A stretch of 53,410 nt of DNA. It comes from Serratia sp. M24T3. Its GTDB lineage: Bacteria > Pseudomonadota > Gammaproteobacteria > Enterobacterales > Enterobacteriaceae. The number at the start of each line of letters is the position of its first letter. Position 1 is the stretch's first letter. The notes under the pieces were generated by a model. It saw only the letters and a program-made list of their open reading frames with translations, was not told the origin of the DNA and did no database searches. The position numbers were made by a program, and so were the translations under genes. Positions 19,783 to 26,635 of the stretch are shown piece after piece. Location of the stretch: the NCBI RefSeq assembly GCF_000257645.1, contig NZ_AJHJ01000032.1:1-53410 (forward strand). The letters are read 5' to 3'.

Positions 19783-22334
19783 TTACTTTTTAACTGCCGA
19801 GACATTTCCTGGTTTGAAATGCAACAGGCGGTTAGCGTTAGCGACAACGGTAATTGAAGACAGCGCCATAGCTGCTCCGGCGACAATAGGGCTCAGTAAT
19901 GTTCCTGTCAGCGGGAACAGTACTCCGGCAGCAATGGGAATGCCGATGATGTTATAGATAAATGCGCCGAGCAGGTTCTGTTTCATATTACGCAGTGTGC
20001 CTTTTGACAAAGCCAGCGCATCGGCAACGCCGTGCAGGCTAGGGCGCATCAGGGTAATCGCAGCGGTTTCAATCGCTACATCGCTGCCGCCGCCCATGGC
20101 AATCCCCACGTCGGACTGAGCTAGCGCAGGGGCATCGTTGATACCATCGCCAATCATTGCCACCTTCTCGCCCCGTGCCTGCAAGGCTTTAATCGCTTCG
20201 GCTTTTCCATCAGGTCGCACACCGGCTATTACGTCGCCAATACCCGCCAGTTTCGCTATTGCATTCGCCGTGACCGGATTATCACCCGTTAACATAACCA
20301 GCTTGAAACCTTGCTGATGCAGCCTCTGTAGTGCCTCGATACTGTCTTCGCGCAGCGAATCGCGGATTGAAAAAAGCGCGACTATTTTGCCATTGGCCGC
20401 CAATAACACGGGAGTGAAGCCTTCCGCTGATTGCCTGGCGAGCAGCGTATCGACCTCAGTACAGTCCACCTGCTGTTGCTCAAGCAAGTCGCGATTGCCC
20501 AACAATAGCGTAGTTGTATCAGTATTTCCGCTGACGCCAAGACCGCCAAGCGTGCGGAAGTTTTCAACATTGACTGTTGGCAGCCCGGCAGCTTTCTCGG
20601 ATATTGCCTGTGCCAGCGGATGATGAGAACCTTGTTCCAGTGAAGCAGCCCAGCTTAAGGCCTGATTTACATCGGTTTGATTAAATAGCTGAATATCAAC
20701 GACCTGCGGCTTACCTTCAGTCAACGTTCCAGTTTTATCAAACACCAGAGTGGTCAGCGTGCTGGCCCTTTGCAGTGCATCGGCATCTTTTACCAAAACG
20801 CCAAATTCTGCGGCTCTACCGACACCTGCGGTTATTGACATCGGCGTGGCTAGCCCCAGCGCACAAGGGCAGGCGATAATCAATACCGTAGTCACGATGA
20901 CCAGCGTGTACATAAGCTGAGGTTGTGGCCCAAAAAAATACCAGATAGCGCCACTAAATAGGGCAATCAGCACGACTGCCGGGACGAACACTGCCGAGAT
21001 TCTGTCTGCCAATTTACCTATTTCGGGTTTACTGCTTTGTGCTTCGCGCACCAGCTTGATAATGCGCGACAGTTGAGTCTGACCGCCAATTGCCATCGCA
21101 GTAAACTGCACGCTGCCGTCTTTGACTTGTGTACCGGCGCTAATTTTTTCGCCTCGAGTACGGTATTGTGCAATGGGCTCACCCGTCAGCATCGCCTCAT
21201 CCATCCAGGCTTCACCCTGATGAATTTCACCGTCGACCGGCACCCGATCTCCAGTTGTGAGGCGCAGAAGCATGCCCTGTTTTACCTCGGCCAGAGGCAC
21301 AGTCTGCTCTCCCTGCTCAGTGATAACGCGCGCCGTGGGCGGGGTTAGGTCCAGTAAACGCTCAAGCGCCCTGGAAGATCGCTGACGTCCGCGTTGCTCA
21401 AGTGCGTGACCAAGGTTGATGAGGCCAATAATCATTACGCTAGCTTCAAAATATAAATGCCGCGCCTGCATCGGGAACGCGTCTGGCCATAACGAGACAA
21501 GAAATGAAAAGATCCATGCCGCGCCAGTGCCCAGGGAAACCAGTGTGTCCATGTTGGCGCTGCCGTGCATCAGGCTTTTCCAGGCGCTGCGATAAAAATG
21601 ACCGCCGGCGACGATCATAATCACCAGTGTCAAAATGCCAACGATAAGCCAGCCTGTTTGGTTACCGGCGTTCACCATCATGTTGCCGCCAAATAACCCC
21701 CATGCCATCAGCGGGATGCCTGCCGCCAGACCCAATGCCGCCTGCCAGCTAAAGCGGATCATGCTGCTGCGAGCAGTTTGCTGCTGACGTTCTCGGCGTA
21801 GGGTTTCATCAATGATGATTTCTGCGCCGTAACCTGCTTTTTCAACAGCGGCTATCAACGCCTGGGCGTCGTTGGCGCCCTGAACCAGTGCGCTGCGTTC
21901 AGCCAAATTAACCCTGGCTCGTTTAACGCCGCTTACGCCTTCTAAAGCACGCTGTACCTTGTTGACACAGCTGGCGCAGCTCATACCGCTAAGCAGGAGC
22001 TGCACGCTATGTTCTTCCATTGAAGGAGGTCTAGCTGCTTCCGATGCCGGAAAATTAGGGATTGCCGCTGACTGAGGTTCCGGCAAGGAAATTTCAGATG
22101 GAGTCAGCGGCTCAATTTTGGGGATGATTCATCCGCCAGCAACTCGGCGTGATATCCCGCGTTTTCGACCGCATCAAGTAAACTCTGGTTACTGACATTA
22201 CCGGTCACGATCGCTTTATCAATTGTCACTTCAACAACGTGTGCTCCACTTACCGCTTCCAGCGCTTTACGTGTTGAAGCCACGCAGTGTCCGCAAGACA
22301 ACCCTTCCAGGGTCAATACAGTCGTGTTTGTCAT
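19783..22334 (-). CDS. copA: Cu(+)-exporting P-type ATPase CopA (expressed by -1 frameshift)
   Basis: Inner-membrane P1B ATPase that exports Cu+ to the periplasm. The gene reads in two frames: ATG 22334 to the slippery site at 22122-22116, then the -1 frame from ATT 22116-22114 to the stop at 19783, giving about 850 aa (E. coli 834). HMA1 has GLSCGHC (11-17) in the zero frame; HMA2 has GMSCASC. CPC ([11 protein letters not shown]), DKTGTLTEG, the HP of HHPLAQA and GDGINDAP are intact. No Shine-Dalgarno stands before TTG 22086 or the first ATG of the second frame, so independent initiation looks poor. A CueR-type promoter lies upstream. A frameshift mutation or sequencing indel is the main alternative, but the signal structure (22122-22046) argues against it. 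Confidence 0.88.
22046..22122 (-). promoter_or_regulatory. copA -1 frameshift signal with pseudoknot
   Basis: Minus strand: heptamer C CCA AAA (22122-22116) in frame with the short product; 5-nt spacer TTGAG; stem 1 CCGCTGACT (22110-22102) with AGTCAGCGG (22073-22065), 9/9 pairs; stem 2 TGCCGGAA (22085-22078, inside the stem-1 loop) with TTCCGGCA (22052-22045), 8/8 pairs, making an H-type pseudoknot. The zero-frame TGA lies within stem 1. All pairs were checked base by base; efficiency is unknown. Confidence 0.88.
22104..22334 (-). CDS. CopZ-like copper chaperone (zero-frame product of copA)
   Basis: Without frameshifting, translation from ATG 22334 ends at TGA 22106-22104, giving 76 aa: one HMA domain with the metal-binding GLSCGHC (C14, C17) and the usual beta-alpha-beta layout. 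GAGGA lies upstream of the ATG. E. coli makes a similar 70-residue CopA(Z) from the start of copA by frameshifting. Here it would be the default product. It shares its first 72 codons with CopA. Confidence 0.85.
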
Positions 22335-22401
22335 AATGGATCCTCTGGGCAATTTGTGCCCTGTTAAACATCAAAAGATGGTCAATTTCTACTCGTGATA
22401 T

Positions 22402-22432
22402 AGAATAAACCTTCCAGCAAGGGGAAGGTCAA
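22402..22432 (-). promoter_or_regulatory. CueR-controlled copA promoter
   Basis: On the minus strand: -35 TTGACC (22432-22427), 19-bp spacer, -10 TATTCT (22407-22402). Within the spacer lies the CueR dyad ACCTTCC-N7-GGAAGGT (22409-22429 on the plus strand). The long 19-bp spacer is the hallmark of MerR-family activation, and the operator matches E. coli PcopA closely. It overlaps the cueR ribosome-binding site. Confidence 0.92.
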
Positions 22433-22441
22433 GGAGCAAAA

Positions 22442-22840
22442 ATGAACATTAGCGATGCGGCAAAAAAAACCGGTTTAACCAGTAAAGCGATTCGTTTTTA
22501 TGAGGAAAAAGGCTTGGTGACAGCCCCCATGCGCAGTGAAAATGGCTACCGCAGCTATGCACCTAAGCAAATTGAAGAACTTACTTTACTGCGTCAGGCT
22601 CGCCAGGTCGGCTTCAACCTTGAGGAGTGCCAGGAATTGGTCGCGCTATTCAATAATCCGCAGCGACACAGTGCCGATGTAAAAGCGCGAACGCTAGAAA
22701 AAGCGGCTGAAATTGGAAGACACATCGAAGAACTAACAGATATGCGCCAGAGATTACTGGCGCTTGCAGACTCTTGCCCTGGTGATGAGGGAGCCTTTTG
22801 CCCAATCATTGATAATTTGAGTGGATGCTGCAAAAAGTAA
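22442..22840 (+). CDS. cueR: Copper-responsive MerR-family regulator CueR
   Basis: Activates copA (and cueO elsewhere) when Cu+, Ag+ or Au+ binds. 132 aa (E. coli 135). N-terminal MerR HTH ([20 protein letters not shown]), dimerisation helix, and the metal loop [10 protein letters not shown] with C112 and C120, the Cu+ ligands. It ends in a CC-containing tail. AAGGAG precedes the ATG. Divergent from copA; the E. coli glsA-ybaT pair between them is absent. Confidence 0.96.
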
Positions 22841-23006: not shown

Positions 23007-26000
23007 CTAGATTTGTAAAATCCATAATTCTGTTTCTGAAGATTCTTGCTCACTACTAAATTCCTGTTCCACCTGTCGCAAGGTGAGTGTGTCGCTATTT
23101 TCGGGTAACTGGAAATAGCTGAAGGGAATAGGGTAGTGAGTGTTTTTTTGGATAAGGGAAACAACGTCAGGTAGAACATCTTCAGGAACGATTATGCTTT
23201 TTATCTCTTCGGGTGAAATTATATTTGATCGTGCGTTTGGAAGGTTTTGGTGATTTCTATCCATGATTATTATCAATGGGATGTGGATTTCGTCTTTATT
23301 TAGTCTTTCAGAGCCTACTATTCCCTGGTTAAATCGGCTAATTAATCCATTTGACTCGCTAATAAGGGGCGTTAATTCAATATCAGGTGCTAAATCGTTT
23401 TTATTAATTAAAGGATGATGCCCATCACTGATGGCCTCAAGTTCTTGATTGCGGGCAGTCTCTAATTCCGGGCTCCATAAAGCATCATTTTCGGCTTGCA
23501 TGAATGCTTGATAAATATAGCTAATATTTGCGCTGGTTAATGTTTCTTGAGAATGATTGACTTTCGGAGCACTAAACTGAGTTATTGTGATTGAAGTGCC
23601 ATTGATAATCAGCCCGCGAAGGTCAGTGCCTATAAACTCTAAATTGCTATCTATCAGCAAGTTACCGTCAGTTTCTAATTTGGATAAAAGTGTTTGGGAA
23701 GAGTTGCCATCATTCGTTGAACAATTGGTTATCCATTGACTTAAAGCTGTCTTTCCCCATAGATTACTGCCGATATTATAAAATGAATTGGGAAACCATT
23801 GGTTAATTATTTCTGAATTGCTAATTAATGCGAAATTTTGATTTTTGTCTTTTTTAAGCTTGCTAGCCCGTTTTACTAGTAACCTTTCGGATATTCTCCT
23901 TTTGGCTGCGATTTTCTCAAAGAGTAGAGTAGTATCATGAGGCAATCGTTTAGAAGCATAATTATCGATAAAGGGTAGGTCTATATCAACACCTATATCT
24001 AGTTTATTAACTGTTGGTTTCTTCTTCCCTAAAATTTCATTGATTCCTTTGCTAATTCTTTTTTTAACTTCAGGGGGGATCATATCATCCGATATTTTTA
24101 TCTGAGGTAATGACTTTAGTACCTTGCTTAACGCCCAACCAATTCCCTCACTGCTCAAGGCAAGAAGAGCATCAACTAGAAATTCTTGTACTTTTTGTGG
24201 ACGATCGGCTGTAGCAGACTGAATTAATTTAGGAATGATGGTACTGACAGAGGTAATAGCCAAACTGGTTATCACATGACTAAGTTTAGCGACGGCAAAA
24301 TGAGATGAGCCACCCAACGATAATGGAATTGAGGCGATAGCAATTGAGGTGCCAATCGAGTCCATGGTTTCAAATATTGAGTTCCAATAAATTTCCGAGT
24401 CAGATAAGGCCAAATAATCCATGTCGGACTGAAGATTTTCAATAAATTTATTATAATGTAATTCACTGAGTCTTTCAGAAGCACCAAACGTTAGTCTCGG
24501 AGTATTTCTGACTGTGTCGCCTGCTTCAACCACTAACTTTCTATTTACTTTAACCTTTTCTAATAATGAGCCCATTGGTTGATAATTTTCTTGATCTTCT
24601 AAAGATAAATGACTGGCTAAAAATGAGTCAAAGTCTTCTCTAATTAAAAAAGAAACAGCATTTCCATTAGCTACAATATTATAAACACGCTGGTCAGTCG
24701 TAGAAAAGAGTAATCCCTTTGTTTCTATTTGTTGATCGTAAGAGGTGGTGATTATTTTTTCCGATGTTGGGATTAAAAATAAATTTCCAACGGCCTTGTT
24801 TTGCCAATAAACAGCACGAGGTTTTATTTTATTTTCTAAATAATTCTCAAGATAAGAGATTTCTTTTGAATAAAATATCGGCTTATTTGTTCTTATATGA
24901 TTATAAACTCTGGCCTTCCACGCGATATCGAAATATTTTATCAGGTATTCTTTTATTTCTGGTTGTTTTAGGTGATTATTGAGTTCTTCAAAATATTCTT
25001 TTTGTATATCCGTGTTTTTGAATTTCTCTGCCATTGCTGGGGAAATATCCTCTGGCCACTCAAACTCTAAGTTAATGCCTTCATAAGTTCCACGCCGGTA
25101 CTCTTTAGTTAGTATTTCAATTAATGTATGACTTTTAACTCTTTTAGATATATTCATCGAGGTATCAATTCTCCTCGCAGGCAGTCGAGTTTTTATTGCC
25201 AAATTGCTGTTAATAGAATTGTGGTCTCCACCTTCCTCTATAACAATTCTTTTAATTCGATCATTTATCCATGTTCCAAGATGAAGAACAGGGTGATCCA
25301 AGGCAGATAAGGATTTAGAGAATTCACTTACGGCCATATTGATGGCCTTATTAGCTACTAGATCAATGTTGGTTTTATTATTTTCTGAATTAAAAAGATC
25401 ATTAATGATAGACGTTGTATTTTGAGTGGGAAGGGGAGCGGCAACAGAGGATCTCGTAACTTCTGAAGATGGTAAAGCTGTATTTATTCTACTTTTACCC
25501 TTTTTAGATTTTCTGGCTGGAAGTAGGTGATGTGGTAACTCAAAAAAACTCATCGACAGTATGGGCTTTGCCTCGGCTCCGTTAAATAATGCAGCCGGTC
25601 CCGTACTATGTGCTACTACACTTCTCACTGACTTTCCGAAGGATGTGATGGTACGATCAACATGCTGCAGTAAACCTTCGTGCGTTTCCTGAATAATGCC
25701 TGCTAAATTATGCGTTACTCCAACTATATGCGTTGCTCCAACTATATGCGTTGATCCAACTATGTCATTAGTTTCATTTTTCGTTAGAGGTGTCAGAGTG
25801 TTATGTAAATTAAACGTATTTGAAGACGGGGGTTTAATGTTATTTCTTATTGCTCTATGATTGCTTGCGAAATCTAAACCCATTGCACCTTGAGTATAAA
25901 GTAATAGCATTGCCTGTGCCCAGGGATCTGTTCTGAATTTTAACGCAGGATATTCAATGTTTGCAGGATTGTATTTTTGTTCTTTTTTGGCGTTAAATAT

Positions 26001-26039
26001 TTCAGAGGACATGTTTTTATTAATGTACGAAACAGGCAT
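23007..26039 (-). CDS. Large orphan protein, possible secreted toxin/effector
   Basis: 1010 aa, not confidently recognised. Clearly AT-rich compared with its neighbours, with rare-codon use, so probably acquired. No N-terminal signal peptide is evident. Residues near 70-90 contain three IVGxTH hexapeptide repeats. The middle (about 330-530) is mixed charged helices with a block LLFSTTDQRVYNIVANG...FLASHLSLEDQENY that recalls large dermonecrotic-toxin-like/effector proteins. A hydrophobic Ala/Ser/Ile-rich stretch near 560-610 could insert in membranes. The C-terminus is Glu/Ser-rich. No adjacent immunity or chaperone gene is visible. It lies between cueR and ybbJ, where E. coli has nothing. 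A type III/VI effector or a toxin is a hypothesis only. Confidence 0.6.
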   Translation of the reverse strand: MPVSYINKNMSSEIFNAKKEQKYNPANIEYPALKFRTDPWAQAMLLLYTQGAMGLDFASNHRAIRNNIKPPSSNTFNLHNTLTPLTKNETNDIVGSTHIVGATHIVGVTHNLAGIIQETHEGLLQHVDRTITSFGKSVRSVVAHSTGPAALFNGAEAKPILSMSFFELPHHLLPARKSKKGKSRINTALPSSEVTRSSVAAPLPTQNTTSIINDLFNSENNKTNIDLVANKAINMAVSEFSKSLSALDHPVLHLGTWINDRIKRIVIEEGGDHNSINSNLAIKTRLPARRIDTSMNISKRVKSHTLIEILTKEYRRGTYEGINLEFEWPEDISPAMAEKFKNTDIQKEYFEELNNHLKQPEIKEYLIKYFDIAWKARVYNHIRTNKPIFYSKEISYLENYLENKIKPRAVYWQNKAVGNLFLIPTSEKIITTSYDQQIETKGLLFSTTDQRVYNIVANGNAVSFLIREDFDSFLASHLSLEDQENYQPMGSLLEKVKVNRKLVVEAGDTVRNTPRLTFGASERLSELHYNKFIENLQSDMDYLALSDSEIYWNSIFETMDSIGTSIAIASIPLSLGGSSHFAVAKLSHVITSLAITSVSTIIPKLIQSATADRPQKVQEFLVDALLALSSEGIGWALSKVLKSLPQIKISDDMIPPEVKKRISKGINEILGKKKPTVNKLDIGVDIDLPFIDNYASKRLPHDTTLLFEKIAAKRRISERLLVKRASKLKKDKNQNFALISNSEIINQWFPNSFYNIGSNLWGKTALSQWITNCSTNDGNSSQTLLSKLETDGNLLIDSNLEFIGTDLRGLIINGTSITITQFSAPKVNHSQETLTSANISYIYQAFMQAENDALWSPELETARNQELEAISDGHHPLINKNDLAPDIELTPLISESNGLISRFNQGIVGSERLNKDEIHIPLIIIMDRNHQNLPNARSNIISPEEIKSIIVPEDVLPDVVSLIQKNTHYPIPFSYFQLPENSDTLTLRQVEQEFSSEQESSETELWILQI
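25710..25763. repeat. Three 18-bp tandem repeats inside the orphan gene
   Basis: Units atgcgttactccaactat, atgcgttgctccaactat and atgcgttgatccaactat at 25710, 25728 and 25746 encode IVGxTH on the minus strand. Near-identity at DNA level suggests recent expansion by slippage. Confidence 0.9.
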
Positions 26040-26164: not shown

Positions 26165-26635
26165 TTAATTAATACTTGAAGGAGCATTCAAACCTACAAC
26201 CCGCAACGTATTTCCCTCAACGCCTGTTACAGCGACTTCCTCACCGATATTCAAATTATCGGCACAACTGACTCGCCAGGTGCTATCACCAATACTTATT
26301 CGGCTATAGCCGTTTTCTGGCTGCTCAAGCAAATGACCATGAAGGCCCACCATTTGCCTGCCGCGCTGATTCAGGCTTTCATTTGTAGTCGAGTTATCTG
26401 GTTTGCGCTTAAGCCAATTCGCCCACAGTAAGGCGGCAACAATAGTGAGCACCGCGAAGGCAATGCCTTGCCATTCCCAAGGCAGAGGCAAAACCCAGAC
26501 CAGAAGGCCAACCAGCGCCGCCGCCACGCCGCTCCACAGCAAGTAACCGCTGGCACCGAGTAATTCGGCAGCCAGAAGCACGCCACCAAGTGACAGCCAA
26601 AACAGATGTGGACTTGCCATCAACTGCTGCAGCAT
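26165..26635 (-). CDS. ybbJ: NfeD-like membrane protein YbbJ
   Basis: 156 aa (E. coli 152). Two to three N-terminal membrane segments (about 10-70) and a C-terminal OB-fold NfeD domain (about 90-150: GLHGHLLEQPENGYSRISIGDSTWRV...). NfeD proteins pair with SPFH/stomatin partners. The ATG overlaps the qmcA stop (TAATG), so the two are co-translated. Confidence 0.93.
   Translation of the reverse strand: MLQQLMASPHLFWLSLGGVLLAAELLGASGYLLWSGVAAALVGLLVWVLPLPWEWQGIAFAVLTIVAALLWANWLKRKPDNSTTNESLNQRGRQMVGLHGHLLEQPENGYSRISIGDSTWRVSCADNLNIGEEVAVTGVEGNTLRVVGLNAPSSIN

What the first reader, a model, noticed from the sequence alone, without database searches (positions are those of the whole stretch)
22046..22334. 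copA: short chaperone is the default, full-length pump needs a -1 frameshift
In E. coli, copA is full-length in frame and a -1 frameshift yields the CopA(Z) chaperone (established work, recalled). Here the zero frame ends after 76 codons and the pump domains lie in the -1 frame. At the junction stands a C CCA AAA heptamer, a 5-nt spacer and a pseudoknot with 9-bp and 8-bp stems, all perfect. This would reverse the logic: chaperone by default, pump only by recoding, so the frameshift rate would set the CopZ:CopA ratio.
Basis: partly seen in the sequence, partly recalled or inferred. Interest (0 to 1): 0.95.

Follow-up and report, generated by a model that had tools for sequence, protein, structure and literature searches.

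The report
Copper pump gene with swapped frames
In this bacterium the copper pump gene looks one base shorter right after a built-in ribosome slip site, so ribosomes would make the small copper chaperone by default and must slip back to make the pump, a swap of a known two-proteins-from-one-gene trick that also arose in the Sodalis lineage and seems kept by selection.

Summary
copA lies on the minus strand (ATG 22334). Its zero frame stops after 76 codons (TGA 22106-22104). The pump is one open frame, -1 relative to it, to 19783. The junction holds a C CCA AAA heptamer (22122-22116) and a pseudoknot with stems of 10 and 8 bp. It is not an assembly error: a second strain (2-contig assembly, 97.6% identical over 12.4 kb) has the same split. 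Four other Rouxiella species have the pump in the zero frame; in 67 of 67 distinct canonical sequences the -1 frame stops at once, as in E. coli. The window species is one nucleotide shorter between heptamer and stem 1. It is not a pseudogene: the pump frame shows 27 synonymous and 6 nonsynonymous changes between the strains (dN/dS 0.07). A second, independent swap exists in the Sodalis lineage (S. praecaptivus and a sister genus), with slip site, pseudoknot, chaperone stop and pump frame kept at dS 0.56. Best reading: an inherited copA frameshift site with reversed polarity, chaperone by default and pump by recoding. Reversed dnaX is a stated precedent. Frameshifting was not measured, and internal initiation of a shorter pump is not excluded.

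The parts
22104..22334 (-). Zero-frame ORF: 76-codon copper chaperone (CopZ/CopA(Z)-like HMA domain), stop TGA 22106-22104
   Evidence: NCBIfam PRK10671.1 (CopA) profile positions 1-73 and CopZ_AFE_1862 1.5e-17, both below their cut-offs; Pfam HMA
22116..22122 (-). Slippery heptamer C CCA AAA in the 25-nt overlap of the two frames
   Evidence: CCCAAA[A/G] in all 78 loci with the second HMA domain (69 distinct sequences)
22102..22111 (-). Pseudoknot stem 1, 5' arm GCCGCTGACT (contains the zero-frame stop)
   Evidence: covariation
22064..22073 (-). Pseudoknot stem 1, 3' arm AGTCAGCGGC
22078..22085 (-). Pseudoknot stem 2, 5' arm TGCCGGAA
22045..22052 (-). Pseudoknot stem 2, 3' arm TTCCGGCA
19783..22128 (-). 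-1 frame ORF: copper-exporting P-type ATPase CopA (second HMA domain and pump), 777 aa after the slip; 850 aa as the predicted trans-frame protein
   Evidence: NCBIfam PRK10671.1 equivalog 1385.5 bits, cut-off 1316, profile 72-836
22442..22840 (+). cueR, Cu(I)-responsive regulator, divergent from copA
   Evidence: NCBIfam CueR 192.6 bits, cut-off 147.4
22410..22429 (.). CCTTCCAGCAAGGGGAAGGT dyad between cueR and copA, CueR-operator-like (motif recalled)
   Evidence: for the sequence; reading it as a CueR operator is recalled knowledge

Best explanation
This is the Enterobacterales copA -1 programmed frameshift site with its polarity reversed. In the ancestral state the zero frame runs through into the pump, and ribosomes that slip back one base on C CCA AAA hit a stop at once and release the chaperone. 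In this Rouxiella species the stretch between heptamer and stem 1 is one nucleotide shorter. That puts the pump in the -1 frame and the TGA inside stem 1 (CCGCTGA) in the zero frame. Ribosomes that do not slip make a 76-aa chaperone; ribosomes that slip make the 850-aa pump. Slip site and pseudoknot are inherited, so the expected effect is that chaperone:pump changes from p:(1-p) to (1-p):p, where p is the shift probability. Shown: frames, conservation, selection, two independent origins. Inferred: that the shift happens, and its rate.
For: Same split in two strains with separate assemblies, 113 contigs and 2 contigs, 97.6% identical over 12.4 kb. The four other Rouxiella species searched have a single frame with the same heptamer and knot. 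In 67 of 67 distinct canonical sequences the -1 frame stops at the fourth codon counted from the slipped CCC; 25 of 26 further canonical loci, some repeating a genome, agree. The pump frame is under purifying selection after the swap: 27 synonymous, 6 nonsynonymous between the strains, dN/dS 0.072, binomial p 1.1e-11. Second swap: S. praecaptivus (G009) and sister genus G112 share heptamer, zero-frame stop, knot and pump frame at pump dS 0.56, dN/dS 0.15. On the tree the swapped state needs two changes; 0% of 200 bootstrap trees make it one. The genome has one hit over the CopA equivalog cut-off, and the chaperone query hits only the two HMA domains of this gene. E. coli copA frameshifting is called well supported by ribosome profiling and confirmed by an independent study in PMC9548414 (part 1 of 3 read).
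Against: No expression data. The spacer from heptamer to stem 1 is 4 nt here against 5 in congeners, which could lower the rate. In-frame start-like codons exist between the slip and the second HMA domain's CxxC (22086 TTG, 22020 ATG, 22005 GTG). The one at 22086 aligns with a GTG in G009, though with GCG in G112 (sequences), so a shorter pump from internal initiation is not excluded. Two more divergent relatives have fused copA without CCCAAA[A/G] (G132, G330), so the site is not universal. Only two strains of the window species are held.
Confidence: 0.85

Rival explanations
1. The pump is made by internal initiation or by reinitiation after the chaperone stop, not by frameshifting; slip site and knot are relics.
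For: Start-like codons in the pump frame at 22086 (TTG), 22020 (ATG) and 22005 (GTG) before the second HMA domain's CxxC. The stretch with the ATG is not found in the four congeners. The TTG at 22086 aligns with a GTG in G009 (both stand before CCGGAA).
Against: Weak Shine-Dalgarno pairing: +0.4, -0.7 and -3.3 kcal/mol against -5.8 for the copA ATG; but this is weak evidence, since two other starts in the same check scored +0.6 and +0.1 and one -2.1. In G112 the aligned codon is GCG and its only start-like codon is a TTG at +105, so no one start serves all swapped lineages. Heptamer, knot and zero-frame stop are kept in both swapped lineages.
Confidence: 0.11
2. copA is a pseudogene: the chaperone remains and the pump is dead.
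For: Annotation by single frames would see a frameshifted gene. In the Sodalis symbiont G109 the swapped copA has in fact decayed.
Against: dN/dS 0.072 in the pump frame between two strains that share the split; intact motifs and length; no other hit over the CopA equivalog cut-off in the genome; dN/dS 0.15 at dS 0.56 in the Sodalis pair.
Confidence: 0.02
3. Sequencing or assembly error of one base at the junction.
For: Short runs CCCC/AAAA at the junction.
Against: The same junction in two assemblies that differ by 33 substitutions in the pump alone, and a separate swap in the published finished genome G009.
Confidence: 0.01
4. Transcriptional slippage on CCCCAAAA rather than ribosomal slippage gives the second product.
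For: A run of four A.
Against: The review speaks of bacterial transcriptional slippage on runs of 9 A or T (PMC5009743, passage); the run here is four, and the covarying pseudoknot fits a ribosomal stimulator.
Confidence: 0.01

Closest known systems
E. coli copA / CopA(Z) programmed -1 frameshifting (Meydan et al. 2017 and Drees et al. 2017, neither held; known here through PMC9548414 and PMC5009743)
   Same: Same gene, same kind of heptamer (CCCAAA[A/G]) between the two HMA domains, same covarying pseudoknot, same two products.
   Different: In E. coli the pump is the zero-frame product and the chaperone the -1 product; here the two are exchanged.
Reversed dnaX (review PMC5009743, passages read)
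   Different: Other gene and products. Here the ancestral state, the swap and selection after it can be read within one genus, and a second independent swap is found.
Separate copZ-copA systems
   Same: A free chaperone beside a CopA pump.
   Different: Here the chaperone is the 5' part of the pump gene, not a separate gene.
Corrective or 'savior' frameshifting of indels (PMC5009743, passages)
   Same: An indel whose effect is translated through by frameshifting.
   Different: The review says the unshifted product is then in general useless; here it is a chaperone, and the slip site existed before the indel.

Membership tests
copA -1 programmed frameshift element | X XXY YYZ heptamer CCCAAA[A/G] between the two HMA domains | tested here: met
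   22122-22116; all 78 loci with the second HMA domain; absent in G132 and G330
copA -1 programmed frameshift element | Downstream pseudoknot | tested here: met
   10-bp and 8-bp stems; covariation in 43 sequences
copA -1 programmed frameshift element | -1 frame ends at once, giving the chaperone | tested here: not met
   The -1 frame runs on as the pump; the zero frame ends instead. It is therefore a reversed-polarity variant, not a plain member
copA -1 programmed frameshift element | Measured frameshifting | not testable with these tools
   No expression data
Copper-exporting P-type ATPase CopA (NCBIfam PRK10671.1 equivalog) | Score above curated cut-off | tested here: met
   Pump frame alone 1385.5 bits, cut-off 1316
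Copper-exporting P-type ATPase CopA (NCBIfam PRK10671.1 equivalog) | CPC, DKTG, TGE, GDGIND motifs | tested here: met
CopZ family metallochaperone (NCBIfam NF047957) | Score above curated cut-off | tested here: not met
   63.7 bits, cut-off 85. It should work like CopZ but by sequence is the first domain of CopA
Reversed-polarity programmed frameshifting (dnaX precedent) | Zero-frame stop after the slip gives the short product; -1 frame gives the long one | tested here: met
   Frames as read; recoding itself not measured

The most novel reading that the evidence does not exclude
copA frameshifting is polarity-tolerant. Because the shift is efficient and stop codons stand behind the site in more than one frame (in 39 of 67 distinct canonical sequences a TGA inside stem 1 lies in the frame that a one-base loss would make the zero frame), a one-base loss leaves both proteins made and only inverts their ratio. 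The gene can therefore pass between 'pump by default' and 'chaperone by default' without loss of function, and it has done so at least twice in Enterobacterales; in the swapped state pump synthesis is set by the slip rate.
Probability: 0.5. Interest if true: 0.82.

Novelty: new variant of a known kind. Interest (0 to 1): 0.73.

Why it matters
It would give a natural experiment in which recoding turned from optional to obligatory for a copper pump, with a readable ancestral state, evidence of selection afterwards, and an independent repeat. It makes a quantitative prediction: chaperone:pump is p:(1-p) in most relatives and (1-p):p in swapped species, so comparing them measures p in vivo and tests whether rates near one half make polarity nearly neutral. 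It also warns annotation: such genes would look like frameshifted pseudogenes.

Tried and rejected
Assembly error: rejected by the second strain and by a finished Sodalis genome. Pseudogene: rejected by dN/dS. Second copper pump or separate copZ in the genome: none found. Four E1-E2 ATPase places match in the genome: copA, an 806-aa frame that I read as ZntA from its sequence, and frames of 916 and 692 aa, which I take for MgtA- and KdpB-like from size alone. The chaperone query hit only the two HMA domains of copA at E<=0.001. Known RNA family at 21800-22500: none in Rfam at E<=1.

Other short chaperone frames in the survey were checked and set aside: stand-alone chaperone genes (L041-L043, L045, L046, L049, L112-L114, L140, L141, L146, and the named L021 and L022), a frame broken at a run of N (G340/L110), a poor assembly with many broken frames (G033/L111), and a split between two HMA domains away from the slip site (G283/L061). 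A first tree missed the Sodalis rows because of a too narrow motif and was rebuilt.

Limits and dropped rows. The survey by open-frame length saw rows for 257 of the 262 family genomes with a match, of 392 searched; it did not read every slip site. Twelve of the 90 loci looked at had no second HMA domain motif and were left out; the other 78 are those (69 distinct). One search printed only loci that hold CCCAAA[A/G]; one search looked at what it dropped: of 50 loci L115-L164, 14 have no motif for the second HMA domain, and 7 have the motif without CCCAAA[A/G] (L144 of G132 and L151 of G330 without such a site; L147 and L163, both G152, with a run of A in its place; L157 without a chaperone domain; L158 and L162, which I take for other ATPases). 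Of the 29 with the site, 3 are the G009 swap and 26 are canonical, some repeating a genome. Searches covered 30 and 20 genomes of two genera; by open-frame length they show no new swap with a pump, but the short frames of G430 and G432 were not read. The covariation used 43 of the 69 distinct sequences. The tree used 38 chosen rows.

Papers. Meydan 2017 and Drees 2017 are not held; a guessed DOI returned an unrelated paper. PMC9548414: part 1 of 3 read. PMC5009743, PMC3914690, PMC10187127, PMC7558416, PMC6747150, PMC12589874: passages only. All other papers: listings and abstract starts only. No report of a reversed copA was seen in the listings.

Full report
What is there. The window is contig C32 of a genome in the genus Rouxiella. 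The genus follows (best named hits R. badensis, R. aceris, R. silvae): three genomes of the window's own genus have contigs of the same lengths as those named records. The species itself could not be named; it is not one of those three. copA reads on the minus strand, divergent from cueR (22442-22840), with a CueR-operator-like dyad at 22410-22429 between them (motif recalled). From ATG 22334 the zero frame gives 76 codons and stops at TGA 22106-22104. The pump frame is -1 relative to it. Its nearest upstream stop is at 22131-22129 and it is open to 19783. The overlap of the two frames is 25 nt and holds the heptamer C CCA AAA at 22122-22116. The two pieces tile the CopA equivalog profile: the chaperone covers positions 1-73, the pump 72-836, and the pump alone scores 1385.5 bits against a cut-off of 1316.

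Pseudoknot. Stem 1 is 10 bp (22111-22102 with 22073-22064) and stem 2 is 8 bp (22085-22078 with 22052-22045), all Watson-Crick, in H-type topology; 2 of 5000 dinucleotide shuffles reach S1>=8 and S2>=7, and 5 of 15236 sampled 90-mers of the window do; at S1>=5 and S2>=5 1470 of 5000 shuffles do. On 43 family sequences 86.4% of cells pair, against at most 49.5% when the 3' partners are slid by 1-3 columns. 46 cells are changed on both sides, against 17.6 +/- 3.2 in shuffles (0 of 500 as high). So this is a conserved copA element, not a chance fold. Four outer pairs are poorly kept (columns 13-60, 20-53, 39-82, 48-73).

Ancestral state. Of 78 loci with the second HMA domain (69 distinct sequences), 67 distinct sequences have the heptamer in the pump's own zero frame. 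In all 67 the -1 frame stops at the fourth codon counted from the slipped CCC; the other two are the swapped sequences of the window species and of G112. Of 26 further canonical loci, some repeating a genome, 25 have that stop; L149 does not. One search shows what one search dropped: G132 and G330 have fused copA without CCCAAA[A/G], and G152 has a run of A there. The four other Rouxiella species, ten Rahnella loci and Ewingella L018 are canonical; a second Ewingella record (L021) and Hafnia psychrotolerans (L022) have only a stand-alone chaperone frame there. The window species is one nucleotide shorter between heptamer and stem 1 (spacer 4 against 5 nt), which exchanges the frames. In 39 of the 67 canonical sequences a TGA in stem 1 (CCGCTGA) already stands in the frame that a one-base loss would make the zero frame, so the chaperone would stay short after such a loss. 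The 67 include near relatives (Rahnella), so these are not 39 independent cases.

Not an error, not dead. A second strain of the species (G004, 2 contigs) has the same split and is 97.6% identical over 12.4 kb. Between the two strains the pump frame has 27 synonymous and 6 nonsynonymous changes over 777 codons, dN/dS 0.072; without selection about three quarters would be nonsynonymous (binomial p 1.1e-11). The chaperone part has one change of each kind, too few to judge. Pump dN/dS against the other species (0.043-0.067) is like that among them (0.058-0.099), though dS is near saturation for most of these pairs. There is no other hit over the CopA equivalog cut-off and no other chaperone hit in the genome.

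A second swap. A search among relatives of G112 (40 genomes) brought up G009. G112 (81% complete, 400 contigs, genus g108) and G009 (2 contigs, genus g5) have the heptamer, a zero-frame TGA 16 nt after its first base as in the window, and an intact pump in the -1 frame (792 and 793 aa after the slip). G009 is Sodalis praecaptivus strain HS by its contig lengths 4,709,528 and 449,897, which PMC3914690 gives for strain HS (passage; the species name for strain HS is recalled). Pump dS between G009 and G112 is 0.56 and dN/dS 0.147; chaperone dS is 0.64 and dN/dS 0.22. Both can form a pseudoknot at the same place, stem 1 of 8 bp and stem 2 of 11 (with G-U) and 9 bp. G031 (SOPE by its 4,513,140-base chromosome) has pump sequence without a chaperone domain in front (L157). 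G056 (L159) has a related, decayed stretch whose frame state I did not settle. On a tree of 38 pump segments the swapped state needs two changes, one inside Rouxiella and one for G009+G112; 0% of 200 bootstrap trees make it one, 5-95% range 2-2. Several deeper forks are weak; both swapped pairs are starred.

How common. 392 family genomes were searched with the window's chaperone domain and 262 matched; open-frame rows were seen for 257 of these. Swapped with an intact pump: G000, G004, G009, G112. Swapped with decayed pump: G109. Rare, but recurrent. This is a screen by open-frame length, not a reading of every junction.

Mechanism. E. coli copA frameshifting is described as well supported by ribosome profiling and confirmed by an independent study (PMC9548414, part 1 read) and as efficient, giving a 70-aa product (PMC5009743, passage). 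Here the same site is inherited with its frames exchanged. The simplest working is that unshifted ribosomes end at 22104 and release the chaperone, and shifted ribosomes make the 850-aa pump (73 + 777). The shift itself is inferred. Evidence that it happens: the pump is under selection, the only overlap of the frames is at the slip site, and site and knot are kept in two lineages. The internal-start rival is not excluded. Start-like codons stand at 22086, 22020 and 22005 with weak ribosome-binding-site pairing, though some real-looking starts score as low. The TTG at 22086 aligns with a GTG in G009 but a GCG in G112, and the stretch with the ATG at 22020 is not found in the congeners.

Known or new. 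[quoted passage not shown] So the idea of reversed polarity is not new. I saw no report of it for copA in the listings; the two main copA papers are not held and may mention it. I file it as a new variant of a known kind.

Noticed in passing
L041-L043, L045, L046 (g25), L112, L113 (g17), L114 (g26), L140, L141, L146 (g153), L021, L022: At the cueR - TraB-like locus (seen in those read in full) the pump part is absent and only a stand-alone chaperone gene remains, ending before the slip site. Of eight such genomes searched for CopA, seven have a more distant CopA-like ATPase elsewhere (698-736 bits, below the equivalog cut-off) and G378 none of that size. In g26 four of 30 genomes (G174, G424-G426) show a short chaperone frame.
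   Followed up: partly
L167 (G109), L157/L171 (G031), L159 (G056): Sodalis-like symbionts: G109 keeps the swapped slip site in front of a decayed pump; G031 has pump sequence without the chaperone domain in front; G056 has a decayed related stretch.
   Followed up: partly
L147/L163 (G152), L144 (G132), L151 (G330): Fused copA genes without CCCAAA[A/G]: G152 has a run of eight A at the aligned place (TAAAAAAAACTGAGCC) with what look like the stem arms behind it, perhaps another slip site; G132 and G330 show no such site.
   Followed up: no
L061 (G283): A copA with an extra HMA domain is split between two HMA domains, away from the CCCAAA site; error, decay or another recoding site not decided.
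   Followed up: no
L149 (G137): The one canonical copA among those read whose -1 frame does not stop right behind the heptamer (CCC AAA AAC GAA), so a slip there would not give the usual short chaperone at once.
   Followed up: no
window 23007-26039, minus strand: A 1010-aa ORF without any Pfam match (E<=0.001) lies between cueR and the gene at 26165-26635; its stretch aligns in strain G004 but not in the fetched stretches of the four other Rouxiella species.
   Followed up: partly
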